From Chrysophaeum taylorii (lineage: Eukaryota; Sar; Pelagophyceae; Pelagomonadales; Pelagomonadaceae), in the NCBI GenBank assembly GCA_029834535.1, contig JAQMWT010000548.1, forward strand, positions 1 to 64,000: DNA of 64,000 nt. Direction: 5' to 3'. The notes under the pieces are model-generated. The model searched no databases, was not told where the DNA came from, and saw nothing but the letters and a program-made list of their open reading frames with translations. Made by a program: the position numbers and the translations under genes. Below are positions 2,671-37,414 of this stretch, piece by piece. The stretch's first letter is position 1. The number at the start of each line of letters is the position of its first letter.

Positions 2671-2737
2671 CACAGGGGTATATATAGCCCCGGGCACTCG
2701 CACACACCAGGACCGGCATTCCTACACTCACCTTTTG
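2671..2737. repeat. 67-bp direct repeat, copy A
   Basis: A 67-bp sequence beginning cacaggggtatatatagccc and ending ctcaccttttg is repeated without change, as far as I can read, at 3055-3121. It contains a short GGGG-TATATATAG-CCCC inverted repeat. The pair flanks the extra segment that makes the third unit longer than the others. Confidence 0.85.
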
Positions 2738-3054
2738 GTTATGGGCCCTTAAAGCGCTCGAGGTGGATCGCGCGTTCGAATCCGCCCCACCGCTGCGCCG
2801 CAAGGAGTGTGTGAGTGCCTGTGTGAGTGCCTTTGAACCAGTTGCCATCGCCAACTGCTGGAGCCCCATCGTCTAGCACAAACACTAGACCCCCCTCATC
2901 TGGGCGCTTTCACTTACCAGGACCGGGTGTTCATCTCCGACGCAGATGTTCATCTTAAGCAGATGTCGTCGTCGTCTGCTGGGTCCCCATCGTCTCGCAT
3001 ACACATACATGCTTGACTCGCCCCAGATGTTCACGTTTCACTATGATGGGGAAG

Positions 3055-3121
3055 CACAGGGGTATATATAGCCCCGGGCACTCGCACACACCAGGACCGG
3101 CATTCCTACACTCACCTTTTG
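3055..3121. repeat. 67-bp direct repeat, copy B
   Basis: Second copy of the 67-bp sequence at 2671-2737, 384 bp downstream. The sequence between the copies includes two similar CCCCATCGTCT stretches and no recognisable gene. Confidence 0.85.
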
Positions 3122-3189
3122 AAACAGACAAACAGACAGACAGACAGACAAACATCTGTCGATTAGTAGTTAGGAAGACAAGTGCATGC

Positions 3190-3520
3190 CAGTAAGTTCA
3201 CCTAGTCCCAATCTCTAACCCCAGTAAGTTCACCTGGTCCCAGTAAGTTCACCTGGTCAGTAAGTTCACCTAGTCCAAATCTCTAACCCCAGTAAGTCCG
3301 GCGCAAACACACTCGCGCTCACCCCACTCTCCTTCGAGCTCGTCGCTCTCGCCTCCGCCAATCTAAGCTGCTTTGATCCGCACACGCCGCTAACCTTTGA
3401 GTTTACTCTAAAACCCCAGTAAGTTCACCTGGTCCCAGTAAGTTCACCTGGTCACTATATTCACCTAGTCCCAATCTCAAACCCCAGTAAGTTCACCTGG
3501 TCCCAGTAAGTTCACCTACA
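3190..3520. repeat. CAGTAAGTTCACC minisatellite, copy 3
   Basis: Third block. Its inner unique segment carries small differences (cgcaaacacactcgcgctc instead of cgtaagcccactcgtgctc) that are partly shared with the fourth block, suggesting stepwise duplication of the array. Confidence 0.8.
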
Positions 3521-3547
3521 GTGCGCGTGTAGACGCCGGGAGGGGGC

Positions 3548-4106
3548 TTATCGGTATTGCGCAGCACGTGTGGGGTAGGGTGGAGTCGTCGACTCAGAAG
3601 AGCATATCCTCGGGGTTGCCGATCGACAGAGAGCCACGTAGAGCTGGACGTGACAGAAGACGGGCTTGGGCAAGAGGACGCCGACCTCGCGGGGCGTCTG
3701 GCCCTGGCTCTTGTTGATCGTTTGGCGTCGGCGGGCCTTAAGGGATACAGGTTGGAGGAGCCTCGGTGACACGACACGATCGATCATGTATCTGGTACCG
3801 TTGCAGTGGCCGTGCGACGGGTCGAGGTTGCGAAGACTTTAAGCTCGCGATCAAAGTCAGCATGCCGTTGGTTGTCAGGGAGTCGAAAACTCGACTGTAA
3901 AGAGCGAGGCGTCGTCTTCCGACCCAACCTAGTCGGCCGAAAAGAACTCCGACGCCTCGTCTCCGGGAAAAAAAGGCCGCGGTCATGCGCGCGTTGTCAG
4001 CATCGACAACATCGTTTCGACGGGGCGTGAGAATGGCGCGCTGAAAGAGCCGCCGCGGGTCGTGGAAATAGTCTGCGAGGTCGCCGTAGACGGCTTGGAG
4101 GATCAC
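3548..4106 (-). pseudogene. Helicase C-terminal remnant, unit 4
   Basis: This copy keeps the canonical INKSQGQT motif in one short frame with [21 protein letters not shown] and the preceding MIDRVV stretch, making it the best preserved C-terminal end in the array. The upstream ILQAVYGDL..RAILTPRR part is in another frame. It is still a relic. Confidence 0.8.
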
Positions 4107-4215
4107 TGTCTGGCTCTCGCACCTACCTGATCCTTACTCTCGCGCCTACCTGATCCTTACCCTACATCGAGGGACAGACAAACAAACAAACAAACAGAGA
4201 GACAAACACAAGTGC

Positions 4216-4557
4216 AGGCCAGTAAGTTCGCCAGTAAGTTCACCTGGTCCCAATCTCTAACCCCAGCAAGTTCACCTATTCCCGTCAAGTTCACCTAGTC
4301 CCAATCTCTAACCCCAGTAAATTCGGCGTAAGCACAGTCGTGCTCACATCCACTCACCCCACTCTCCTTCGAGCTCGTCGCTCTCGCCTCCGCCAATCTA
4401 AGCTGCTTTGATCCGCACACGCCGCTAACCTTTGAGTTTACTCTAAAACCCCCAGTAAGTTCATCTGGTCTCAGTAAGTTCACCTGGTCACTAAGTTCAC
4501 CTAGTCCCAATCTCAAACCCTAGTAAATTCACCTGGTCCCAGTAAGTTCACCTACAG
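4216..4557. repeat. CAGTAAGTTCACC minisatellite, copy 4
   Basis: Fourth and most diverged block, with several variants such as CAGCAAGTTCACCTATTCC and GTCAAGTTCACC. It is followed by the last helicase remnant, after which no minisatellite block occurs. Confidence 0.75.
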
Positions 4558-4584
4558 TGCGCGTGTAGACGCCGGGAGGGGGCT

Positions 4585-5149
4585 TATCGGTATTGCGCAG
4601 CACGTGTGGGGTAGGGTGGAGTCGTCGACTCAGAAGAGGATATCCTCGGGGTTGCCGATCGACAGAGAGCCATGTAGAGCTGGACGTGGCAGAAGACGGG
4701 CTTGTGGGCAAGAGGACGCCGACCTCGCGGGGCGTCTGGCCCTGGCTCTTGGTGATCGTTTGGCGTCGGCGGGCCTTACGGGATACAGGTTGGAGGAGCC
4801 TCGGTGACAACGACACGATCGATCATGTATCTGGTACCGTTGCAGAGGCCGTGCGACGGGTCGAGGTTGCGAAGACTTTAAACTCGCGATCAAAGTCAGC
4901 ATGCCGTTGGTTGTCAGGGAGTTGAAAACTCGACTATAAAGAGCGAGGCGTCGTCTTCCGACCCAACCTAGTCTGCCTAAAAGAACTCCGACGCCTCGTC
5001 TCCGGGAAAAAAAGGCCGCGGTCATGCGCGCGTTGTCAGCATCGACAACATCGTTTCGACGGGGCGTGAGAATGGCGCGCTGGCTAAAACAGCCGCCGCG
5101 GGTCGTGGAAATAGTCTGCGAGGTCGCCGTAGACGGCTTGGAGGATCAC
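4585..5149 (-). pseudogene. Helicase C-terminal remnant, unit 5
   Basis: Last copy in the array. It has ITKSQGQT and the ILTPRR region, but a 3-base change alters the PKPVF segment (now reading LPTSPSSATS in the long frame) and a short extra sequence near 5085 adds a further frame change. The array ends ~100 bp beyond, at a CAGA microsatellite. Confidence 0.75.
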
Positions 5150-5367
5150 TGTCTGGCTCTCGCGCCTACCTGATCCTTACCCTAAATCGAGGGACAGACA
5201 AACAGACAGACAGACAAACATCTGTCGATTAGTAGTTAGGACTCAAAGGTTAGCGAGCGTGCGCTGATCAAAGGAGCTTAGATTGGCGGGGTTGAGAGCG
5301 TCGAGGTGAAAGGAGAGTGGGGTGAGTGGGTGTAAGCACGAATGGGTATAAGCCGATTATAGGGGGG

Positions 5368-5572
5368 ACGGCAAGGCGCTAGCCTAACCGTCCGGGCGCC
5401 GCCAGGGACCCGGCGGCCGAGAGACGTAGGGGCCGTTGGCGTTTCTGTAAGCGCCTTGGCGCTCCCTGAAATGTGCCTGTGCGTAATGTCGTTGCCGGAG
5501 GTGGGCGGTGGCTGCACCGCCTTTGACATACTGGAGGCCCGTAAGAAGGAGACGGGCACGCGCGCGGTGCAC
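5368..5572 (-). repeat. Dispersed repeat with coding-like character, copy A
   Basis: The minus strand here closely resembles the plus strand at 48,043-48,255. Both encode RARLLL-GLQYV-GGAATAHL followed by AQAHFR-RQGAY. Most base differences between the copies fall at third codon positions (CTT/CTC, CAG/CAA, GGT/GGG, GCA/GCG, AGG/CGT, TAC/TAT), as expected for a sequence once selected as protein. The surrounding 5261-5926 holds no other recognisable gene. I do not recognise the protein. Confidence 0.7.
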
Positions 5573-5926
5573 CGTGATGGAGAGGCGTCGGTAGAGGCGC
5601 GTTGTCCGAGCCGCCGTGGCTGCCGCGAGGAAAGGAGCACCTTCCTTGAGGCAAGTGTTGATGACAATTTGACGGGCAACACGGTGGAGAAGGCCATATG
5701 TAGGTTGTCACTACCCTCCGCGCAATTACCAACTACAAACCCCAGGCACACGGGCCCGAACTCCGCGAAGCGATCCCGGAAAGGACCCCGCGAGGCTGCC
5801 GGATCGACCCCACAGAATTTCCTGTCGGCGTACGCAGGGGTTCGTTCGCGTGACATTGCAACGCTACCAGTTTCAGTTTGATGATGTTGATGCGGCCGGC
5901 GATGCGACCGTTTCGTTATTGACTGG

Positions 5927-8043: not shown

Positions 8044-8430
8044 TCAAAGCGTTGTCGCGCCGCTGGTTGAAACAGAGGGTTCAAGAGAGGTCAAGGTTCG
8101 TCCGCGCGAAGGCGACGGGCATCGCGTGGACGTTGGGAGCACGGGGTCACGCTGCTGCACGTCCCAAATCAGGTGGGTCTTCTGCGGCCGATGCTCCTTT
8201 CGACCCCTCTTCACGACGATCGGCAACTCCATGTCGAACTGCTCGCCCTTCACGATGATCAAGCGGGCGGCCCCGTCCTCATCCGCTCGTTCCCCGTCTT
8301 CCTCGGGGGTTCGGAAGTCGGCTATGGGCGGCGGTTGGTTTTCCGCCTCTTTGGCCGCCGGACGGTTTGTGTCGTCATCCCGAGCCGCGTGGCGGTCCGC
8401 CGTCGTTCGCCTCGAAGGCGCGAGTCATCA
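8044..8430 (-). CDS. Possible small gene or exon, unknown
   Basis: An open minus-strand frame runs from a stop near 8434 to 8044. The middle has gene-like composition with high-GC third positions and the sequence LIIVKGEQFDMELPIVVKRG followed by THLIWDVQQRD. No ATG opens the frame at its upstream end; the first internal ATG codes for the Met of FDMEL, so this would have to be an internal exon or a decayed gene. The last ~30 residues look like non-coding read-through. No family recognised. The DNA between it and the next gene (8435-8794) shows nothing else. Confidence 0.25.
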
Positions 8431-8794
8431 TATGACGCTGTTTATCGCGAGAAAAAACGGAAGACGTCCGAAGCATTCTTGCGTCCTATAGGTAATTTCT
8501 TTCTCGCAGCTAAAAAGAAAATGCGGAAAAATACCGTTCCAACGGACGGGGACGCACATTGAACTTCCCGTTTATGCTATGCGTTTAGTGTTCAACATAC
8601 TGAAAGACTGAGCTGGCGACGACGGTTTCTTAAACGAAAGGATTTTAGGAAAGACACAAAGGGAAGAAAATAATGCCGGAAAAGAAGAAGAATCTTGGGT
8701 GCTCATTATTGAAATATCTGGGAAGCCACAGAAATAGGTTGAAAAAGAAACCCGTGTCCCATTTTTTCGATACCAAGAAATGCGAGCAACGCCG

Positions 8795-9727
8795 TCAGGC
8801 CAAGGCTGCCTCGAGTTGGGCGGCGAGGTCGTTTTTCGAGGGCGAAGGACCTTTGACGGTGAGGACGGTGAAGTCCGTGTTTCGGACCGCAGGGGTATGG
8901 AGGGCCTGGACGATAACGTCGGCGAGCGTGGAGCGGAGGGTGTCGCCGGCGGCGTCGTCGCCCTTGGCGATCGCGACCGCCCGGGTCCCAAGATCCTTGT
9001 CGAGTTTGGCGATGGTGCCGAGATAGGTGTCGTTGTCGTAGGGGGGTCCGAAGAGTTGGCCCGGGCGGAGAATAGTAAAGGCGGCTCCCCGCGCTCGGGC
9101 GGCGCAAACGACGGCCGCCTCGCCCCTCGCCTTGGCGTCGAGGACTCCGGCGGCGTTAAGTATTGTGAAGGGAAAGGCTGTGCGCCTCGTGACGCCGAGC
9201 GAGGACATGAGAACGACATGGTCGAGGTCGTCTCCGAGGGCAGCGGCGAGACGTTCGACTCCGACCGCGTCGACGACGTCTGGCGTCTGCATGCCGCGTT
9301 CGGAGAGTTTGTCGATCGTGGCGCGCACGTCGAAGCCGCACTCCCACCAGGTCGCGAGGACGACGCGCGGGACGTCGTCGACGCCTACGTCGCCACCGGC
9401 CCACGCGGTCGTGGGAAACGCGGTCGTTCCGGTACATACGACGACGGCCGCGACGCCGCCGAGCGCCGCCTCGAGGTCGCTGCCGGGGTCGGCGATGTCC
9501 GCGACCCTCACCTCGGGGGTCGCGTCGTCGAGGAAGGCGGCGAGTCTGTCGGCGCTCTGCGGAGTCCTGACGACCGCGCGCACGGCGTGCCCCTCGTCCA
9601 GGAGCCGCCTCGTGACGAGCTTGCCGACGTTTCCCGAGGCTCCCACGACGGCCACCGTTTTTTTGGGCACCCTGCTGTCGAGAACCAACGCATCGACAGA
9701 CAGCAACGCAACCACCAGAGACATCAT
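8795..9727 (-). CDS. NAD(P)-binding reductase, atypical SDR / NmrA-like
   Basis: 310 residues, no intron. A hydrophobic N-terminus (residues 1-17, MMSLVVALLSVDALVLD) looks like a signal peptide. A Rossmann fold follows with VAVVGASGNVG (residues 25-35), matching GxxGxxG of NmrA-like/atypical SDRs, then VVRTPQSADRL, VVVCTGTTAFP and VVLMSSLGV. TILRPGQLFGP in the second half is typical of this family, whose plastid members (for example Ycf39/HCF173-like proteins) act in photosystem assembly or as reductases. The substrate cannot be told. Secretory or plastid targeting is inferred from the N-terminus only. Confidence 0.8.
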   Translation of the reverse strand: MMSLVVALLSVDALVLDSRVPKKTVAVVGASGNVGKLVTRRLLDEGHAVRAVVRTPQSADRLAAFLDDATPEVRVADIADPGSDLEAALGGVAAVVVCTGTTAFPTTAWAGGDVGVDDVPRVVLATWWECGFDVRATIDKLSERGMQTPDVVDAVGVERLAAALGDDLDHVVLMSSLGVTRRTAFPFTILNAAGVLDAKARGEAAVVCAARARGAAFTILRPGQLFGPPYDNDTYLGTIAKLDKDLGTRAVAIAKGDDAAGDTLRSTLADVIVQALHTPAVRNTDFTVLTVKGPSPSKNDLAAQLEAALA

Positions 9728-10003
9728 CTCGGAGATGCGCCGCCCGAACAGGGTTGGGAGGGAGGAAGAATGTTGTAATTGTAAATGTACGCATTAGTGG
9801 AACAACAACATACAACTGACGCCAGCACTTTCGCCTCGAGGGTCTGGCCATGGATTCCATGGGGCCGTAGTTGTCGAGCATTGCGCGATGGCTGGGCTGC
9901 GCTGGGCGTCACGACGACGCTTTGCTCGGCCGTCGGACGCCTCGGGACCATAGGGCGCTACTCGGTTATTGGGCTTTGGACTTTGGAGAAGGACGAGGCT
10001 GCG

Positions 10004-17824: not shown

Positions 17825-18162
17825 TGTGGCGTAAGGAGGATTTTAGGGGCTACCTGGCGTGCCTTCGAATCCTGGCTCGCCGATCGCGTCCGTGCCCTTG
17901 GTGGGATCACTGGACGAGGATGGCCGTTCTCCCGCCACGCGACCACAAACAACTTCCGTGCCTGGTCCTCTCAACTTGAGGATCGGCTGTTGCTTTATGA
18001 TCAAGGATAATCGAAAATCAGAAATCAGGGTGACACATGTCACGGAAAAGGAAGATGATGTCATAGAAAACTCTGACATCATCGGAACGGAGTAGGGTGC
18101 CCCTGATAAGGGGGGGGGGCTAGAAGAGGGGTAAGCCTTAGGAGGCGGAAGTTGCCGCCACA
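17825..18162 (-). repeat. 3' LTR (left side)
   Basis: 338 bp, with 7-bp inverted ends TGTGGCG/CGCCACA. Nearly identical to 24,329-24,665. The adjoining inner sequence, read on the element strand, has the purine-rich stretch CCAGGGGAGTCC that could be the polypurine tract. Confidence 0.9.
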
Positions 18163-20148
18163 GGACTCCCCTGGTAAGAATTCGAGCTGCCCCAGCGAGG
18201 TTCTAGCGCGAGGAGCGCGGCTTCGCCTTACGAGCATCTCGTGAACGAATCTTCTGGTAAACGCGGGTGATGATCGGTTCAGGAACTCGACCACTGCGTA
18301 AAGTAAACTTGGGGACCAACACGTCAATCTCGTGCGGAGCGAAATCCGTGACACAAGGAGTTGTGTTGGAGGAAATTCGGGACTTGTCGGTGAAACTTCG
18401 ACCTTCAACGTCCTTGAATTCGGGCTTGAGCTTGCGGTGCGAAAGGTGAGAGGTCGGCTTGAATAAGCAACATCATCGTTCGGACCCAAATCGGAATAGA
18501 AATGTAGAGCAACACGATCATTTTCATCATCGTTCGGACCCAAATCGGAATAGAAATGTAGAGCAACACGATCATTTTGGTAATCGTAAGGCTCGTAAAC
18601 TTCAGCAACATAAACCTTCTTGCGCCAATCGGAGCGCTTCCGGTCGGGAATTCGGAAAACAACAAACTTACCGTGCTGATAATCATCACGGAAGGTTTCT
18701 TCGGGTTTGCGGATGGTTTGATCAACAATCGGAGGTACCATCACAGGCGTGATCTGACTTACATGAACACGCCGCTCTTCGGGCGGCGAGTCGAGAGACT
18801 CAATCCTATAGGTGACCGGGAAGAGGCGTTCCTTGATAATAAACGGTCCTCGCCATTCCGGTCGAAGTTTGTTCTGAAGGAAAGGGATGTAGAGCAAAAC
18901 GTGCGATCCTTCCTTGTATTCAACATCAACATGATCAGCATTGTAAGCCAATCGCTGTTTCTTCAAAGCTTTATCACGAGCCTCGCGGACGATCTTTGTA
19001 TAATATTTCAATCGTTCGCGAGTCTCGGCGACTGCATCGGAGCGAGTCTTCGGCAATAATCGTGTATCAAAATCCATGAGCGTGTAGTCAGTCGGCAGCA
19101 TCGGCTGACGGTTCAGGCGTAGCATAAAGGGAGAAATCTGCGTGCCTGGAATAAACTTGCGGTTATAGCAAAACGCAATATAATGGGCAAAGTCAGGCCA
19201 ATCCGTGATGTTCCGGCCTTGAAGGCAAGCACGGAGGAAGGCCTTGATAAATCGGTTGACACGCTCAGCCGGGTTCGACTGGGCATGATAAGGAACCGTA
19301 GTTTGGTATCGTGTGTTAAAGAGATGGCAAAACTTGCGCATCAACTTGTTCACGAACTCTTTACCGTTGTCGGTACGAATCATCTGGGGCAAGTAGCCCT
19401 TGAGGAGAATGTTAATGACAAAAGACTCGAGGACAGACTCAGCGGTCTTATCGTTCAAAACATCCAGAATCAAGAAATGCGAGAACAGATCAAAAAATAC
19501 TAGAAGATACGTCTCGGGACCAGCGCTGGGCAAGGGTCCAAATAAATCCATGCAAAGAACAGCACCATCACCATCGTAGATGGGCTGCTGCAAGAGTCCA
19601 GCTCGTTTCGGCTCAGGCGTACGAGCTTTCTGACAAACTAAGCATTCAGCAATGAAGACTCCAACTTCGTTCGACATGTGAGGCCACCAAAATCGTTCTT
19701 GGATAGCCTGGGCGGTACTGTGACGTCCCATATGACCACCGTTAACCGGAGTGTCATGATAGAGTCGAATAATGCGTTTGCGCAACGTAGCAGGTGCAAC
19801 AATCATCGGGTGCGAATCAGCAGAAATGCGGTAAAGAACATCTTTAACGATTTCGAATCGTTCGTTCGCTCGGGAACGTCGCGGCGTCTGACCTTGGGCC
19901 ATTCGGTAGCGAATATCCTCGCAAGTAGCATCAGATTCTTGCTCACGTGCGATCTCAGCGAGCGTCATATTATCGGGTATCTTATCGATATAATCTTTGT
20001 AAGCGGCTGCGTCCTTGAAGATCTGTGGCTCATCACGCCCACGGTTCTTCCGACGTTGTCTCGTAGCGTGAGACGTAGCCAATTTCATCGGATCCTTTTC
20101 AGGGTCTTCGTCTTCGTCTTCCGGCAGTTCGGTCGTAATAAACGACAT
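18079..20148 (-). CDS. Retrotransposon integrase
   Basis: 689-residue open frame. The zinc-binding HHCC motif is present (HDTPVNGGHMGRH ... CLVC), followed by the D-D-E catalytic core: D in CMDLFGPLP, D in IRTDNGKEF and E in AERVNRFIK. A GPY/F-like module (WRGPFIIKERLFPVTY) lies in the C-terminal part. A perfect 54-bp tandem duplication at about 18,475-18,582 repeats NDRVALHFYSDLGPNDD. The frame runs on into the LTR, so the last ~30 residues may not be meaningful. The ATG overlaps the stop of the preceding RNase H frame as TAATG. Confidence 0.9.
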   Translation of the reverse strand: MSFITTELPEDEDEDPEKDPMKLATSHATRQRRKNRGRDEPQIFKDAAAYKDYIDKIPDNMTLAEIAREQESDATCEDIRYRMAQGQTPRRSRANERFEIVKDVLYRISADSHPMIVAPATLRKRIIRLYHDTPVNGGHMGRHSTAQAIQERFWWPHMSNEVGVFIAECLVCQKARTPEPKRAGLLQQPIYDGDGAVLCMDLFGPLPSAGPETYLLVFFDLFSHFLILDVLNDKTAESVLESFVINILLKGYLPQMIRTDNGKEFVNKLMRKFCHLFNTRYQTTVPYHAQSNPAERVNRFIKAFLRACLQGRNITDWPDFAHYIAFCYNRKFIPGTQISPFMLRLNRQPMLPTDYTLMDFDTRLLPKTRSDAVAETRERLKYYTKIVREARDKALKKQRLAYNADHVDVEYKEGSHVLLYIPFLQNKLRPEWRGPFIIKERLFPVTYRIESLDSPPEERRVHVSQITPVMVPPIVDQTIRKPEETFRDDYQHGKFVVFRIPDRKRSDWRKKVYVAEVYEPYDYQNDRVALHFYSDLGPNDDENDRVALHFYSDLGPNDDVAYSSRPLTFRTASSSPNSRTLKVEVSPTSPEFPPTQLLVSRISLRTRLTCWSPSLLYAVVEFLNRSSPAFTRRFVHEMLVRRSRAPRARTSLGQLEFLPGESCGGNFRLLRLTPLLAPPPYQGHPTPFR
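18475..18582. repeat. 54-bp tandem duplication in the integrase C-terminus
   Basis: The segment catcatcgttcggacccaaa...cgatcatttt occurs twice in direct succession with no visible difference, adding 18 in-frame residues to the integrase tail. Confidence 0.85.
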
Positions 20149-20711
20149 TATGAAGTGGCAGCCAGAGACGGGAACTCCTCGGTCATCAACAGGCCGGGAA
20201 GCTCTTGGAACACTAAATACGCGTGGTTCAAAGGTTCTCCAAACTCGTCAGTCTCGATGACATGATCTATCGGGTTGCGGGAGAGACAGTCAGGGATACT
20301 CATTCCCGGTGACTTTCCCGGCTTGTAACCAAGTTCAGGGTCAAAATTGGCGAGGCGCATCGCCCAACGAGCAAGCTGCCCAGACGAGTGCGTCGCCTTA
20401 CGTAAAAACGTCAAATTTCGGTGATCGGTCTCCAAAACAGTCCGGTGCCATTCGATGTAGGCTCGAAAGTGCTCTAGAGAAAGTATAACTGCCAGCAGCT
20501 CTAGCCGACGAGGCTCATAATTCCGCATCTCCTTCGGCACAGCTCGGCTCCAGTATTCAATTACTCGTTCTTCTCGAGTCACTCTTCCGGCATCGTCCTT
20601 GACTTCGACAATTTGGAAGAGATATGCTCCAAGTCCATCCTTGGAAGCATCGGATCGGATCTGAAAAGGCAGATCATAATCGGCGTGGTAGACTCCACGG
20701 GAATCAACCAA
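20148..20711 (-). CDS. Retrotransposon RNase H domain
   Basis: 187-residue frame, separated from the reverse transcriptase by a frame change near 20,735. It has IRSDASKDGLGAYLFQ and VLETDHRNLTFLR, the two acidic motifs of Ty3/gypsy RNase H, and a tail (SIPDCLSRNP) matching the usual ADALSR ending. It closes with TAA overlapping the integrase ATG. Confidence 0.88.
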   Translation of the reverse strand: MVDSRGVYHADYDLPFQIRSDASKDGLGAYLFQIVEVKDDAGRVTREERVIEYWSRAVPKEMRNYEPRRLELLAVILSLEHFRAYIEWHRTVLETDHRNLTFLRKATHSSGQLARWAMRLANFDPELGYKPGKSPGMSIPDCLSRNPIDHVIETDEFGEPLNHAYLVFQELPGLLMTEEFPSLAATS

Positions 20712-20715
20712 AGCT

Positions 20716-23425
20716 TCAATAATCGTATCCCAAGCTTTGACACTCGGGCGTCCACTCGAACTTTACACCTTCGAGGCATAATCGTCTCAACGGTTCCACA
20801 ATCTTCGAGTAGCCCTTCACATATCGCCGGCAGTAATTACTCATGCCGATGAAAGAACGTATCTGGGTCTTCGGGGAAGTATTCGGTAAAGTACCTGGAA
20901 TCGGCATCTTCTGCAGTGCTTCCAGCGTCTTTGGATTCGGCTTCAAGCCTTCTGGGGTAGAAATGTGTCCCAGAAATTCTATATCATCCTTGAGAAGGTG
21001 GAACTTCGCGGTTCGACCGCTGTACCCTCTCTGTGCCAAATGACACATCACTTCGATCAAAACTTGTAAATGTCGATGAAGATCGTCGGATCCCATCATA
21101 ATATCGTCAACAAACGCAACCAAGTCTTGATACATCCATTTCGAAAGGTCGCTCGCCATTTGCTTGCAGAAAAGAGCTCCGGCCGTCTTCACACCTAGAG
21201 GTAATCGCAAGAAACTGTGAGCGCCAAGTGGGCTAACCATCGTGACAGCGTCCTGCGCTGCCGGATCCAGACGAAGGTTGTGGTATCCCCATCTAATATC
21301 AATGCATGTCCGCCATCGTCTCATCGCGAGAAAGGCTAAAGCATCATCTTGTCGAATGTTTGGCCAACTGTCATTGACCAATTGATCGTTGAGCTGACGT
21401 AAGTCAACTGCAGCACGGAACGCGTTTGACGTTCCAATCTCAGCTCCTTTCTTCGGAAGCATCAACACAGGAAAGCCCCAAGGTGAGTTGGCCGGACGAA
21501 TGACTCCATCCCGGCACCACTCGCTGATTTGCTTGCGGAGGCAATCGAGCTTCGCAGGCGTCAATCGGTAGGGCGTCATCTTTATCGGTCGCGGATTCGC
21601 GTCTTTGAATCGTAGAGACACAGGAGGCGAGTCCACAGGTCTCATAATCGGGTCGAAAAAGGCCCAAGAATATTGCACACAGTGACGGAGCATCAGTTTC
21701 GCCTCGTCATCTAAGTGCGGATTGTCAGGAATTCCCAGCTCCTGCACAACCTTGTCAACTTCTTCCTTCGTAGGAATTTTAACTTTCATTGCTTCGTTGT
21801 CCTTGACATGCTCAGGAGTCTGCGGCAGTGGTGCACGCTCGGCATCGCGCGGCGCATCTTTCCATGGCACATCGAACTTTTTCTCGTATTTTAGTTTCAC
21901 TTCCGGGTGGCTTTTGTTGATCCTCTCGCCTTTGACACGAACACTCGGCTCGCTCTTAATCTTCGGTTCCCGATTTTGCTCAGGATCTGGCGGAACGTCT
22001 AAATTTGGTTGTCGGGGGGGCCCAGCAGAAGAAGCATGAGACGTCCCCGGCTCATCTGTTGCAGGCGGAATCAACGGTACCTCTGGAGGTTTCCATTTGG
22101 TGAGATCTTGAAGATCATCAGTCGACACCCATCTTATGACACGTGTGCGCGTGTTTAACAGCGGAACTTGTACGTGACGAAGGGTGGTTTCATCAATTTG
22201 TAAATAATAATCAAACGGTCGGTCTGTAGGACTCCAAGCTGACGGCAAAGTTTCGCCGCTCAGGCGAAATTCCTTGGTCACAGAGTTGTGCAGATCGAGC
22301 ATTAATAAGGCTATCGTGTCAGGTGGCACGACGGACGCCAAGTGTTTCAACGAGGTCGTCTTGGAGAGGCCGGCCCAATCAAAATCAGGGGGCATCGTCA
22401 GCAACTCCGAAGTCATTTCCAGATTCAGAGATCTGTAATCAGAACGGTGCGGTCCTACGCGAAGCGGGACACGCGTAACAGTATAAGCTGCGTCTGTCGC
22501 GGCTCGTGATGATCCTAAATTGTTCATCTGAAGTAAATGTCGTTCGTCGGCGTAGCCAAGTGCTGCGGCGAACTTTTGCTGCATATTCTTGCAAGTCTTT
22601 GGAACTGCGCGCAAATGGAGCGGATGGCTGGAAACCAACAATCGCACGCGACAGCTCATCAAACTAGGAGTTATGTCGCAAAAATTGACGACGTATACGT
22701 ACGGGTGCAAACGTGCAACGTAAGAAATAATCGAAGCCTCCTGCTCTATCAACCACATGAAGAAACCAGCCATCTTGCATAATTTCATCGTCCAGTGGGT
22801 AGCGGTAACTCCTTTCCCAACATCTCTGGAGGTCAAGTTGCACAGAGCGGAGTGTACGCAGGGTGGCGACGCGACACGCATCGACGACGACCATTCCGCG
22901 TAGGGTAAATAAGATTCGATCAACCGTAAGGTTGTAACATAGCGACCACACAATGTGTGCTGCACCACAGGAATATTCGGAAAGTTCTTGTGGTGGATCT
23001 GGTTGGCGGTGTCCGACGCATCGAGTGCTAGCACGACTCGAAACGACGTCCCACACACACGTTTCGTTGGCTCGTTGGAGACCTAAAGTACTGCCTCCGG
23101 CTCCACTGAACAGCATCACCACCTTGCGATAAGTGATTGGAAGCCATTGAACCTTTTCATATCGGCGGCGGATCTCCGCTTCGGTGATCTCGCGGCATTT
23201 CTTTTCATCTTCTTCCGACCTTCGAGCGAAATCGTCGCTGCCTTCAGGTCGTTTGAGGGTGGACTTGTCCGTCATAGCGGTCGTAGCGTCCTTCTGCACC
23301 GTGCTGTGTGTGCACGTGTGTGTGTGTGTGTCCAGGGGAGTCCTGTGGCGGCTCTTCCTCAGCTCGGGACTCCGGGCTGCTCGCTCGCCTTGATCGACTC
23401 GGCGTACGTAACTCGTCTCTTTCAC
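20716..23425 (-). CDS. C5-cytosine methyltransferase-like domain plus reverse transcriptase (frameshifted)
   Basis: Two overlapping minus frames (23,425-22,664 and 23,058-20,716) form this region; the frame change lies in a GTGTGTG run at ~23,050. Methyltransferase landmarks in order: VVMLFSGAGGSTLGLQ (motif I, F.G.G), VVLALDASD..ANQIHHKNFP (motif II), VASPPCVHS (motif IV with the catalytic Cys, ~22,855-22,880), WLIEQEAS (in place of ENV, motif VI) and MSCRVRLLVSS (motif VIII-like, near 22,630). A Pro/Glu-rich linker follows, then a Ty3/gypsy reverse transcriptase with AAVDLRQLN, LPLGVKTAGALFCKQM and AFVDDIMMG (active-site DD at ~21,100). The methyltransferase call is by motif only. Confidence 0.75.
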
Positions 23426-33241: not shown

Positions 33242-34342
33242 ATGGCGTCGCCCATCATTCGGTGCGTGCAGGCCCGGGACCTGGGGTGCCTCCTCTCGCT
33301 CGCGGGCCCCGAAACCGACACGACCGAGACGGCCCTCATGATCGCCAGCGAAAGCGGCTGGTCCGAGGGGCTGGAGGTCCTCCTCGACCGTTATCCCGGC
33401 TCCGCCGTATCGGCGCGGACGCAGTCGGGGAACACGTGCGTGCACCTCGCCGCGAAGAACGGCCACGCCGCCGCGATCCGGCTCCTCCTCGCGCACGGCG
33501 CCGACGCGGCGGCCACAAACGTTGCGAAAAACACGCCGCTGATGTTCGCGGCCGCGTCCGGGGCCGCTGCCGCCATCTCAGCCCTCCTCGAGGCCCCGGC
33601 CTGCGTCGAGACCATCGACGCCACCGACAGTTCGGGCCACACCGCCCTCGCGACGGCCTGTTTGGGCGCCGCCACCGCCGCGCGCCTCTCGGACGCTCGC
33701 GAAACCGTCGTCGCGTTGATCGACTCCGGCGCCAACGCGGCCCTCTGCGACCTCAAGGGACGCGACGCCCGCAGCATTCTGGCCGAGGCCCTGCGCGCGC
33801 GGCCCGACGACCCCGATCTCCTCGCGATGGATTCCGCCGTCCGTCGACGATTTCGCGCGCTCGAGGCCCGCGCCGACGCGCAAGCGAAGAGCCTAATCGA
33901 CGAGGCCGACCGCGCGACCATCAAGAAGAAAAAGTCCAGGCGCGGCAGGCGCGGCAGTGGCTCGACTCGACGCGACGACGACCTCCCGAACAACGACTGG
34001 GCTTCCGTCGTCAGAAACGGCGCCCGCTTCACCAAAGTGACCTGCGGCGACGAGGACCCCCCCCCCTCGCCCAGACCCCTCGACGACGACGACAATGACG
34101 ACACCCAGCGCTTCTTCGAATCCCTGCACCCCGAGGCGGCCTCCCTCGTCCTCACCCTCCGCGACCTCCTCCTCCCGTCCCCGACCCTCTCCAGTTCCCA
34201 GCTCGAGGCCCTCCACGACATCCTCGACCAGTGCCTCCGCCGGGTGGTCGAATCTCGCATTATCCTGGCGGTCGAAAGGGAGCGGTCAGCCATTCTCGCC
34301 TCGGCCGAACAGCGACCAAGCTCGGCGAGTCCCAAACCCTAG
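33242..34342 (+). CDS. Ankyrin-repeat protein
   Basis: 366 residues from the chosen Met (MASPIIRCVQARDLG); an in-frame Met 26 codons earlier would add a Lys run and is less likely. About four ankyrin repeats fill residues 1-180: TALMIASESGWSEGLEVLL, NTCVHLAAKNGHAAAIRLLL, NTPLMFAAASGAAAAISALL, HTALATACLGAATAARL. A basic stretch (IKKKKSRRGRRGSG) could be a nuclear signal. The C-terminal ~90 residues are helical with no known domain. It likely acts through protein binding; partner unknown. Confidence 0.85.
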   Translation: MASPIIRCVQARDLGCLLSLAGPETDTTETALMIASESGWSEGLEVLLDRYPGSAVSARTQSGNTCVHLAAKNGHAAAIRLLLAHGADAAATNVAKNTPLMFAAASGAAAAISALLEAPACVETIDATDSSGHTALATACLGAATAARLSDARETVVALIDSGANAALCDLKGRDARSILAEALRARPDDPDLLAMDSAVRRRFRALEARADAQAKSLIDEADRATIKKKKSRRGRRGSGSTRRDDDLPNNDWASVVRNGARFTKVTCGDEDPPPSPRPLDDDDNDDTQRFFESLHPEAASLVLTLRDLLLPSPTLSSSQLEALHDILDQCLRRVVESRIILAVERERSAILASAEQRPSSASPKP

Positions 34343-34364
34343 TCCCAAACCCTAGTCAGTCAGA

Positions 34365-37319
34365 ATGTGTGCTGCGACCTCGCTCAAGGGCGAGATGGCG
34401 TACCTGCGTCGGCGCGACGCAACGAGCTGGACGATCGCGAAGGGGTTCGTGCCGAACATGCGCGTGCCGGGCGTGTTTTACGTCGACGCGGCCCTCGAGG
34501 CCCTGGTGTTCGACGAGCTCCGGCAGCACTGCGTCGCCAAGGGCGTCGGAGGGTTCCTGCCGGCAATCAAGCAGATCGCCAACGTCGCGGCTCTCCCGGG
34601 GATCGTGGGGTCGTCGATCGGGTTGCCCGACATCCACTCGGGCTACGGCTTCGCGATCGGGAACGTCGCCGCGTTCGACGTTAACGACAGAGACGCCGTC
34701 GTATCGCCCGGAGGCGTCGGCTTCGACATAAACTGCGGCGTGCGCGTTTTGCGCACCAATTTGACCGAGAAGGACGTCGTCCCGGTGCGCGAGAAGCTCG
34801 CGCAGAGCCTGTTCGACCACATTCCCGTGGGCGTCGGGTCGCGCGGCGTCATACCCACCTCGGAACTCAACCTCGACGCCGCCCTCGAGATGGGGATGGA
34901 CTGGACGCTCCGCGAGGGCTACTCGTGGGCGGAAGACAAGGAGCACTGCTTTGCTCCCGACACCGAGGTCTTGCTGGCCGACGGCCGCCGCCGCGCCATC
35001 GGCGCCTGCGCCGTCGGAGACGTCCTGGTCGACGAACGCGGTCGAGCCTGCGCGGCGACGCGCGTCTCTCGCGGCTACGGCCAGCTCTTCGAGGTCGTCT
35101 ATTCGAACGGCGGGGGGCGCTTCGTATGCAACGCTGCGCACCGCCTCGTCCTATACTTCTCGTCGAGTTCGGTCTTCTCGTCCATCAACGACGACGACGA
35201 CGACGGCTACCGCGTCGCGTACCGCGACCTCGCTTTCGACGCCCGACTCGGTTTTGTCGCGCCGATCGACAGGACGATCGACTTTCTCGTCGATAAAAAA
35301 AAAACGCAGGAGGCAACTACTCCTACGCTGGGTGACGCAAAACGCAGCTTCGGGACGCTCGCCGAGGCGCGCGCGGCAGCCCTGGCCTTGTTCTTCTTCT
35401 TCGAGGATAGGAGAAGAGTTTGGGAGCCGACGGTCGAGCAGTATGTTCGCTTCGACCGCGAGCTCGACTGCTGCTGCTTCCGCATGATGCGCGCGGCGCC
35501 CGAGGTGCTGCCGCTGGCCTCGCCGTTCCCATCTCTTGCCTCGCTTCTGGACGCGGCCTACGCGGACGCCGAGGCCGCGGGCGGCCCGCGCGTCGCTCGC
35601 GCCGAGCGCGTTTCGCTCGCCGAAGTCGCGTACCTCGTCGGCGCGTGCCTGGGTACCGCCGGAAAAAATCGCGCCGTTGTGGAGCAACCCGGCAGCGGCG
35701 GCCTCGATTTTCTCGCGCGCGTCGCGCCACAGGAGGTGAAGGTGCGAGTTGACGGACACTCCCGGGTGCCGATCCTCTCGGGGTCGAAGAAAACGAAGTC
35801 GAAGAAGCGCGACGGCGTCGTCGCGCCCCTCCGGGCCGTCGATCCCAACAAAGCGCACAGAAGAACAAAAATGCCGCAGTCCGACTCGTCCAGAAACGTC
35901 GTCGCTTGCCTGCTGGCGCGGCTCGGAAATTTTGGCGGCGAGGCGGTGGAACACGCGTTCGCGCGCGCCCCCGCGGACGCGCGCGCTTCTTTTTTGGCCG
36001 GGCTCGTCGACGCGAACGGGTCGCGGCACGGCGCGAGCTGGACGCTGGAGGGCGAGCAGCGCGGCCTGCCGATCGCGATGCTCGCGTACCGCGTGGCACT
36101 GTCCCTCGGCTTTTGCGCGAGCATATCGCGCGACGACAAGAACGAGGTCGCCCGCATCACCTCTCCCGCGGGCGACGGCGACGTCGTGTCGCCGCGCCTC
36201 GCGGTCGCGTCCAAGAAAGTGCCGGTCGACGAAGACGCGTCCGAGCGGTGTCCGCGCGGCGCGGCGCTCTACCGCTTCACGATCCGACGCGTCGATGCCG
36301 GCGAGTTCGTGAGCCTCGAGGTCGACAGCGCCTCGCATCGCTTCCTCCTCGCCGACTATCTCGTCGTGCACAACTGCGAAGAGTACGGAAGGATGCTCCA
36401 GGCGAATCCCGCCAAAGTCTCTCGGCGCGCCAAGAAGCGAGGCATGCCTCAAATGGGCACGCTCGGCGCGGGCAACCACTATGCGGAGATTCAGGTCGTC
36501 GACGAGGTCCACGACCAGTACGCGGCCGACAGAATGGGAGTCGGGGAAAAAGGCCAAGTCGTCGTCATGATCCACTCGGGCAGCCGCGGCCTCGGCCACC
36601 AGGTGGCGACGGACGCGCTGCTGGCGATGGAACGGGCGATCGAGCGCGACCAGGGCCTCGTCACCAACGACCGCCAGCTCGCGTGCGCCCGAATACACTC
36701 CGCCGAGGGCCAGGACTACCTCGCGGCCATGGCCGCCGCGGCCAACTACGCCTGGGTCAATCGGTCGGCGATGAGCTTCCTCGCGCGTCAGACCTTTGCG
36801 AAGGTTTTCGAGTCGGACCCCGACGACCTCGACATGCACGTCGTCTACGACGTCTCGCACAACATCGCCAAGATCGAGGAGCACCTCGTCGACGGCGAGT
36901 TGAAAACCCTCCTCGTCCACCGCAAGGGCGCGACCCGGGCCTTCCCGCCCCACCACCCCCTCATCCCCGTCGACTACCAGTTCACCGGCCAGCCGGTCCT
37001 CGTTGGTGGTACCATGGGCACAAACTCCTACATCCTCGCCGGCACCGACAAGGGTATGCAGGCCACCTTCGGCTCTACGTGCCACGGGGCCGGCCGCGCC
37101 TCGTCGCGCAACAAGACCAGACGCACCCTCGCCTACGAGGACGTCTTGTCGGCCCTCGAGCAGAAGGGCATCGCCATCCGTGTCGCGTCGCCCAAGCTCG
37201 TTATGGAGGAAGCTCCCGAGGCCTACAAGGACGTCAACTCGGTCGTCGACACGTGTCACAACGCGGGCATCTCCAAGAAGGTTGTCAAGTTGAGGCCCGT
37301 GGCTGTCATCAAAGGATAG
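34365..37319 (+). CDS. RTCB: RtcB-type RNA ligase precursor with in-frame intein
   Basis: 984 residues, no intron. Without residues 195-670 the protein is 508 long, matching the usual ~505 of eukaryotic RtcB, the GTP-dependent ligase that joins tRNA exons in the nucleus and cytosol. Metal and guanylate-site residues are present: D121-x-x-C124 in GFDINCGVR, GAGNHYAEIQ, HSGSRGLGHQ, VSHNIAKIE and TCHGAGR. The close match to the animal protein along its length (KGFVPNM at the front, SKKVVKLRPVAVIKG at the end) shows the eukaryotic type. The intein sits between DKEH and CEEYG. Splicing is needed to rebuild this segment, so the host protein presumably depends on it. Confidence 0.93.
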   Translation: MCAATSLKGEMAYLRRRDATSWTIAKGFVPNMRVPGVFYVDAALEALVFDELRQHCVAKGVGGFLPAIKQIANVAALPGIVGSSIGLPDIHSGYGFAIGNVAAFDVNDRDAVVSPGGVGFDINCGVRVLRTNLTEKDVVPVREKLAQSLFDHIPVGVGSRGVIPTSELNLDAALEMGMDWTLREGYSWAEDKEHCFAPDTEVLLADGRRRAIGACAVGDVLVDERGRACAATRVSRGYGQLFEVVYSNGGGRFVCNAAHRLVLYFSSSSVFSSINDDDDDGYRVAYRDLAFDARLGFVAPIDRTIDFLVDKKKTQEATTPTLGDAKRSFGTLAEARAAALALFFFFEDRRRVWEPTVEQYVRFDRELDCCCFRMMRAAPEVLPLASPFPSLASLLDAAYADAEAAGGPRVARAERVSLAEVAYLVGACLGTAGKNRAVVEQPGSGGLDFLARVAPQEVKVRVDGHSRVPILSGSKKTKSKKRDGVVAPLRAVDPNKAHRRTKMPQSDSSRNVVACLLARLGNFGGEAVEHAFARAPADARASFLAGLVDANGSRHGASWTLEGEQRGLPIAMLAYRVALSLGFCASISRDDKNEVARITSPAGDGDVVSPRLAVASKKVPVDEDASERCPRGAALYRFTIRRVDAGEFVSLEVDSASHRFLLADYLVVHNCEEYGRMLQANPAKVSRRAKKRGMPQMGTLGAGNHYAEIQVVDEVHDQYAADRMGVGEKGQVVVMIHSGSRGLGHQVATDALLAMERAIERDQGLVTNDRQLACARIHSAEGQDYLAAMAAAANYAWVNRSAMSFLARQTFAKVFESDPDDLDMHVVYDVSHNIAKIEEHLVDGELKTLLVHRKGATRAFPPHHPLIPVDYQFTGQPVLVGGTMGTNSYILAGTDKGMQATFGSTCHGAGRASSRNKTRRTLAYEDVLSALEQKGIAIRVASPKLVMEEAPEAYKDVNSVVDTCHNAGISKKVVKLRPVAVIKG
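34947..36374 (+). other. Intein in RtcB (476 residues)
   Basis: The insert begins with Cys195 in CFAPDTEVLLADG (splicing block A) and ends LADYLVVHN (block G), followed by host Cys671. All residues for class 1 splicing are there: Cys1, block B His in CNAAHRLVL, penultimate His, last Asn and +1 Cys. Block F reads VSLEVDSASHRFLL. The middle has two LAGLIDADG-like helices: YLVGACLGTAG (precursor residues 423-433) and FLAGLVDANG (543-552). In both, the acidic residue that binds catalytic metal is replaced (Thr and Asn), so the homing endonuclease is probably dead while splicing should still work. The codon use resembles the host's. Confidence 0.9.
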
Positions 37320-37414
37320 TTGTTCTAGGGAGAAGGGAGGAAATGGTCTGCGTGTCTGCCACCACGTCGCGCGCATTTTTTTTGATAATAAGACGCAATA
37401 ATATCAATAATATC

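What the first reader, a model, noticed from the sequence alone, without database searches (positions are those of the whole stretch)
34947..36374. Intein inside a eukaryotic nuclear RtcB RNA ligase
Seen: a 476-residue in-frame insert with block A Cys, block B His, terminal HN and +1 Cys, splitting DKEH from CEEYG in an otherwise complete, eukaryotic-type RtcB. Known: inteins in eukaryotic nuclear genes are few (VMA1, PRP8, some RNA polymerase subunits and others), and the RtcB inteins I recall in archaea sit at the active-site GFDIN/C. Inference: this may be an undescribed host/insertion-site combination in eukaryotes. It ties an essential tRNA-splicing ligase to protein splicing.
Basis: partly seen in the sequence, partly recalled or inferred. 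Interest (0 to 1): 0.92.

Follow-up and report, generated by a model that had tools for sequence, protein, structure and literature searches.

The report
Intein in algal tRNA-splicing ligase RtcB
A marine alga carries, inside the only gene found in its genome for the RNA ligase RtcB, a self-splicing protein insert that seems to have moved between algal lineages and to have lost its DNA-cutting function, so the working enzyme should be made only after protein splicing.

Summary
Window 34365-37316 is one 984-codon ORF: a eukaryotic RtcB split by 476 residues (34947-36374) between the positions of human RTCB residues 194 and 195, no extein residue gained or lost. The insert is a VMA1/PI-SceI-like intein (Pfam Hom_end_hint above cut-off; PI-SceI best by profile and fold) with Cys1, block B His, terminal His-Asn and +1 Cys. 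A 100%-identical protein names the host: Chrysophaeum taylorii, a pelagophyte alga; one RtcB was found in the genome. Eight database proteins of unnamed organisms have an intein at the same site. NCBIfam's prokaryotic RtcB intein model sits elsewhere (GFDIN^C).

Splicing, the mRNA and the hosts of the eight relatives are not shown, and the deposited gene model cuts this gene differently. Six searches of open papers listed no report of a nuclear RtcB intein. Verdict: new member (new host gene and site) of a known kind.

The parts
34365..37316 (+). RtcB precursor ORF, 984 codons (stop 37317-37319)
34365..34946 (+). N-extein, RtcB residues 1-194, ends EDKEH
   Evidence: human RTCB 3-194
34947..36374 (+). 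Intein, 476 residues, VMA1/PI-SceI-like
   Evidence: Pfam Hom_end_hint 46.9 bits, cut-off 32.1; PI-SceI by sequence and fold
34947..34949 (+). Cys1 of block A (N-terminal splicing nucleophile)
   Evidence: kept in 9 of 9 RtcB inteins; role is established knowledge
35139..35141 (+). Block B His (CNAAH)
   Evidence: kept in 9 of 9
35634..35663 (+). First LAGLIDADG motif, LVGACLGTAG; Thr where PI-SceI has D218
   Evidence: alignments
35994..36020 (+). Second LAGLIDADG motif, LAGLVDANG; Asn where PI-SceI has D326
   Evidence: alignments
36336..36374 (+). Blocks F and G, HRFLLADYLVVHN, ending His-Asn
   Evidence: HN in 9 of 9
36375..37316 (+). C-extein, 314 residues, begins with the +1 Cys (CEEYG)
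   Evidence: human RTCB 195-507; +1 Cys in 9 of 9

Best explanation
A nuclear intein. The gene is transcribed and translated through the insert as a 984-residue precursor. The Hint part (Cys1, block B His, terminal His-Asn, +1 Cys) cuts out the 476 residues and joins His194 to the following Cys by a peptide bond, giving a 508-residue RtcB. The element belongs to the VMA1/PI-SceI-like inteins. It reached this conserved site by endonuclease-driven homing in an ancestor or from another algal lineage; the endonuclease has since lost both catalytic acids, so this copy should now persist by descent, because inexact loss would break the only RtcB found. Shown: anatomy, family, kept splicing residues, lost endonuclease acids, tree conflict, one RtcB in the genome search. 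Inferred: expression of the whole frame, splicing, the homing history and the need for the enzyme.
For: Exact fit between human RTCB residues 194 and 195; Hom_end_hint above cut-off; PI-SceI best in profile search, E 3.3e-23, and fold search, E 6.8e-13; precursor model matches human RTCB across the insert, TM-score by target 0.83, and PI-SceI up to 0.69; eight proteins from other data sets with an intein at the same residue; Cys1, block B His, HN and +1 Cys in 9 of 9; no placement with canonical intron ends restores the same host sequence; one RtcB found; five RtcB active-site motifs present in P0007 (their role is recalled).
Against: No RNA or protein data. The deposited model CTAYLR_004723, from an annotation that used RNA-seq and protein homology (passage of PMC10366177), leaves out the N-extein and the first 24 codons of the intein and joins the rest to an ankyrin gene. 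AlphaFold models are of moderate confidence (pLDDT 65.0 and 71.4), low at the intein ends, and the whole-intein fold match has rmsd 19.5, so domain placement is not shown. TxxH of block B reads NxxH here.
Confidence: 0.92

Rival explanations
1. The insert is an open spliceosomal intron removed from the mRNA.
For: Length is a multiple of 3 and it interrupts a conserved gene; the alga has introns in other genes as modelled.
Against: None of the six placements that restore the same host sequence has GT-AG, GC-AG or AT-AC ends (inexact excision was not tested). Coding composition, Hom_end_hint and conserved intein motifs in nine proteins.
Confidence: 0.02
2. The deposited model is right: the middle of the insert belongs to an ankyrin-fused protein (exons 33242-34328 and 35020-36242) and the RtcB frame is not one gene.
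For: CTAYLR_004723 was built with RNA-seq and homology evidence; the exon ends imply a GT-AG intron 34329-35019 (read by me).
Against: It would discard RtcB residues 1-194 and Cys1. Eight other proteins join the same RtcB parts to the same intein, and the ORF runs unbroken through RtcB.
Confidence: 0.04
3. For the history: no transfer between algae; two diverged intein alleles were present in an early ochrophyte ancestor and were lost many times.
For: Trees alone do not tell gain from loss; no allele with an intact endonuclease was found (0 of 9); intein-free rows sit beside bearers.
Against: P0007 and P0012 share 87% of extein but 30% of intein residues, P0007 and P0003 79% and 47%; the intein tree sets P0007 apart from P0012 (AU p 0.020 and 0.011). 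Keeping two alleles at one site over such a time needs many losses.
Confidence: 0.25
4. The intein or the contig comes from a giant virus.
For: Giant viruses carry inteins, and one (BsV) has an RtcB-like gene (passages of PMC5871332).
Against: Window holds a retroelement and ordinary algal genes. Two scans of viral contigs gave one phage terminase intein at 29% and no match to the RtcB-intein junction pattern.
Confidence: 0.04

Closest known systems
VMA1 intein PI-SceI of yeast (Pfam PF05203, Hom_end_hint)
   Same: Block A and block F/G wording (CFA..T.VL.ADG; H.FLLA...VVHN), CN..H block B, LAGLIDADG region between the splicing halves
   Different: Other host protein; both catalytic acids of the endonuclease replaced
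PRP8 inteins (fungi and others; three in this genome)
   Same: Same Pfam family; nuclear; host protein works in RNA splicing
   Different: 23-26% identical to the RtcB intein in this genome; other host gene
Prokaryotic RtcB inteins (NCBIfam NF038162, RtcB_rel_intein)
   Same: Host protein is RtcB
   Different: Model's intein lies at GFDIN^C, 71 residues upstream; whole-protein score 587.5, cut-off 1150
Second insert of P0003 at GST^C...GN^CHGAGR
   Same: Also interrupts RtcB, starts with Cys, ends with Asn before Cys
   Different: Third RtcB site; 434 residues with no Pfam match up to E = 1

Membership tests
Intein (protein-splicing element) | In-frame insert that exactly interrupts a conserved protein | tested here: met
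Intein (protein-splicing element) | Cys/Ser at position 1, block B His, terminal Asn with His before it, Cys/Ser/Thr at +1 | tested here: met
Intein (protein-splicing element) | Hint fold | tested here: met
   Hom_end_hint 46.9 bits, cut-off 32.1; precursor model matches PI-SceI domain I (1gpp) and Prp8 inteins among its Foldseek rows; model confidence moderate
Intein (protein-splicing element) | Protein splicing of the precursor | not testable with these tools
   needs expression or mass spectrometry
VMA1/PI-SceI-like inteins (Hom_end_hint, PF05203) | Profile match above the curated cut-off | tested here: met
   also in 8 of 8 relatives
VMA1/PI-SceI-like inteins (Hom_end_hint, PF05203) | Active LAGLIDADG endonuclease (usual but not needed for membership) | tested here: not met
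   Both acids replaced, Thr and Asn; the role of the acids is recalled
Prokaryotic RtcB intein (NF038162) | Insertion at GFDIN^C | tested here: not met
Spliceosomal intron | GT-AG, GC-AG or AT-AC ends with exact excision | tested here: not met
   six placements
RtcB ligase (host protein) | Collinear with known RtcB, active-site motifs kept | tested here: met
   motifs DINCG, GAGNHY, IHSGSRG, DVSHNIAK, CHGAGR present in P0007; role recalled

The most novel reading that the evidence does not exclude
In these algae the intein has outlived its endonuclease because conditional protein splicing (for example by redox state or heat, through Cys1 and the +1 Cys) sets the amount of working RtcB. With three inteins also in PRP8, both the tRNA-splicing and the pre-mRNA-splicing machinery of the cell would pass through protein splicing.
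Probability: 0.12. Interest if true: 0.88.

Novelty: new member of a known kind. Interest (0 to 1): 0.66.

Why it matters
Nuclear inteins are scarce. The word RtcB does not occur in the main text of the 2018 survey of eukaryotic inteins, and the rows I saw of its table of common nuclear host proteins do not include it (passages only, supplements not seen). This adds a host gene, a site and a pelagophyte alga. Goodwin et al. 2006 wrote that compelling evidence for horizontal transmission of eukaryotic inteins was lacking (passage of PMC1635734); the RtcB site, where host and intein trees conflict, allows that to be tested. Nine inteins without a full set of endonuclease acids but with intact splicing residues let one ask whether such inteins are leftovers or regulators.

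Tried and rejected

Limits and rows dropped: both protein searches scored only about 8,000 candidates and listed at most 120, so nine bearers is a lower bound. P0004 (a fragment) was left out of the 44-row extein tree; its 36 intein-free rows were chosen by hand from the 151. The frame-broken PRP8 intein was left out of the intein trees. I named the P0007+P0012 test after the extein tree but had also seen the first intein tree. Holding P0007 with the five clade-2 bearers also sets aside that clade's four intein-free rows, so its very small p is not only about P0007. For the endonuclease acids, P0006 and P0010 have an Asp one column after the first position and P0012 two columns after; only P0012 has the second Asp, so P0012 is the least certain case. 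PF05203 rang in 0 of the 14 control genomes.

Full report
OBSERVATION. Bases 34947-36374 read as 476 residues from Cys to His-Asn without a stop, within one ORF of 984 codons, 34365-37316. Pfam gives RtcB (521.9 bits, two stretches) and Hom_end_hint (46.9 bits, cut-off 32.1) over residues 195-669. The part before the insert aligns to human RTCB up to residue 194 and the part after it from 195 to 507, the last residue.

HOST. The window lies on contig C548 of a 70.8 Mb genome in 697 contigs. The best database match to the insert, 100% identical over 86% of it, is CTAYLR_004723 of Chrysophaeum taylorii, a pelagophyte. The published chromosomal contig set has 71 Mbp on 702 contigs (passages of PMC10366177). 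The window also holds a Gypsy-like retroelement (integrase and reverse transcriptase ORFs, 18079-23058), a polyprenyl synthetase, a PAPS-reductase-thioredoxin fusion, an IF-2B family protein, a dual-specificity phosphatase and two protein kinases. I take this to be nuclear DNA. The genome search found one RtcB and one archease, an RtcB partner.

NOT AN INTRON, NOT A JOIN. Six placements of the insert restore the same host sequence; none has GT-AG, GC-AG or AT-AC ends. Codon usage of the insert correlates with the exteins at r = 0.87 (other five frames 0.16-0.73); GC3 is 0.83 against 0.90 and 0.88. Eight proteins from other data sets have an intein at the same residue: four from a search with the insert and four more from a search with a profile of whole precursors, where 7 of the 120 listed rows carry PF05203, three of them known already. 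Intein lengths run from 247 to 513 residues, and 8 of 8 relatives match Hom_end_hint above its cut-off. All come from organisms not named in the listings.

FAMILY. The closest solved structure is PI-SceI, the yeast VMA1 intein: E 9e-6 for the single sequence, 3.3e-23 for a profile of five of the inteins, 6.8e-13 by fold. The AlphaFold models are of moderate confidence: mean pLDDT 65.0 for the intein with 9 sequences, 71.4 for the precursor with 44. The precursor model matches human RTCB across the insert (TM-score by target 0.83) and PI-SceI (up to 0.69).

SPLICING PARTS KEPT, ENDONUCLEASE LOST. In 9 of 9 inteins Cys1, the block B His, the terminal His-Asn and the +1 Cys are kept. The two acids of the LAGLIDADG endonuclease, PI-SceI D218 and D326 by the alignment (their role is recalled), are Thr and Asn here. 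Of the nine, none has the first Asp in its column, one (P0012) has the second, and P0005 has lost the region: 0 of 9 keep both. P0006, P0010 and P0012 have an Asp one or two columns after the first position, so an alignment slip could matter, most of all for P0012. A phage terminase intein, L003, keeps both in the same alignment, which shows that intact pairs can be seen.

SITE. NCBIfam NF038162, the prokaryotic intein-containing RtcB model, aligns to the N-extein as 2-95 and 579-649 and to the C-extein as 650-961: its intein lies at GFDIN^C. The algal site lies 71 residues further on, at EDKEH^C. The other model, NF052663, was not resolved.

HISTORY. On a tree of 44 extein rows P0007 and P0012 group with intein-free P0042 (99/96), then P0073 (100/97), inside an 11-row clade with the named pelagophytes (100/100). 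P0003, P0005, P0006, P0010 and P0011 form another clade with four intein-free rows (97/90). P0017 lies elsewhere, with intein-free P0159 (98/82). The presence of the intein needs at least 6 changes on this tree, gains or losses. The intein tree differs: P0007 goes with the second clade and P0012 with P0017; this one split has 99/99 in the nine-row tree, and the two groups 89/96 and 80/88 in the tree with outgroups, which has long branches. Holding P0007 and P0012 together is rejected at AU p 0.020 and 0.011. Holding the extein of P0007 with those of the five clade-2 bearers is rejected at 5.9e-9. P0007 and P0012 share 87% of extein and 30% of intein residues; P0007 and P0003 79% and 47%. Transfer between algal lineages is the simplest reading; two ancient alleles with many losses remain possible. 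If transfer occurred by homing, an active donor existed and has not been found.

OTHER INTEINS OF THE GENOME. A search of the genome with PF05203 gave four places, all above the cut-off: the RtcB one and three on contig C695. The three lie in PRP8: before the Cys matching human Prp8 719, before a Ser next to human residue 1459, and after human 1506. The last site, FWEKA^C...SGFEES, is as I recall the common fungal site Prp8-a; its frame is broken or holds an intron before the C-terminal part. All three lack the first LAGLIDADG Asp; two of them have the second. They are 23-26% identical to the RtcB intein.

MECHANISM. As in class 1 inteins (established knowledge): N-S shift at Cys1, transfer to the +1 Cys, cyclisation of the last Asn, S-N shift, leaving RtcB without a scar. 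As one RtcB was found, an uninterrupted RtcB should depend on splicing; whether another tRNA ligase type exists was not settled (controls silent).

AGAINST. The deposited gene model, from an annotation that used RNA-seq and protein homology, takes 33242-34328 and 35020-36242 as exons of an ankyrin protein, skipping the N-extein and Cys1 (exact ends read by me). I think it is wrong, because eight other proteins join RtcB to this intein, but only reads can decide.

LITERATURE. The main text of the 2018 survey of eukaryotic inteins (PMC5784728) has no occurrence of RtcB (passages seen). Searches: intein with RtcB, 9 papers; with pelagophyte, 4; with nuclear, stramenopile and Prp8, 3; with RNA ligase, tRNA splicing and homing endonuclease, 2; three of inteins/RtcB/HSPC117/protein splicing, 0; inteins with horizontal transfer, eukaryotes, algae and nuclear genome, 2018 on, 12. 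No listed title or abstract start points to a nuclear RtcB intein; of these papers I opened five for passages (PMC5784728, PMC1635734, PMC5128809, PMC12699882, PMC5871332), the rest I saw as listings. The 2025 diplonemid paper says in its methods that intein segments were identified in GenBank RtcB-family sequences and removed (passage), without naming organisms, so others may have met such sequences. A 2006 paper reports an intein in a viral relic in the oomycete Phytophthora ramorum, also a stramenopile (passages of PMC1635734). Of PMC6805012 (Prp8 inteins) I saw passages and section 6. Subscription papers and intein databases were not searched.

VERDICT. A real nuclear intein in a new host gene and at a new site, with a dead-looking endonuclease and signs of transfer between algae: a new member of a known kind, of more than ordinary interest.

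Noticed in passing
L008 (G000:C695:40000-49999), 2711-3922, 4070-5821, 8307-9830, minus strand: PRP8 of the same genome carries three VMA1-like inteins at three sites; the first LAGLIDADG Asp is missing in 3 of 3, and the one after FWEKA has its C-terminal part in another frame or behind an intron.
   Followed up: partly
P0003 (database protein, unnamed host), between GST and CHGAGR: A second insert of 434 residues, Cys to Asn, at a third RtcB site, with no Pfam match up to E = 1; probably an intein of another family.
   Followed up: partly
window 33242-36242: Deposited model CTAYLR_004723 fuses an upstream ankyrin gene to the middle of the intein through an implied GT-AG intron 34329-35019; likely a mis-model.
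   Followed up: partly
window 18079-23058, minus strand: Gypsy-like retroelement with integrase and reverse transcriptase ORFs in a stretch of lower G+C.
   Followed up: no
window 35151-37376, minus strand: A 741-codon ORF lies antisense to RtcB; with GC3 near 0.9 on the sense strand this is likely a by-product of codon bias.
   Followed up: no
L003 193-1146 (IMG/VR contig IMGVR_UViG_3300028045_000223): A phage gene read here as a terminase large subunit (my reading of the ORF, no family search) holds a VMA1-like intein with both LAGLIDADG acids.
   Followed up: no
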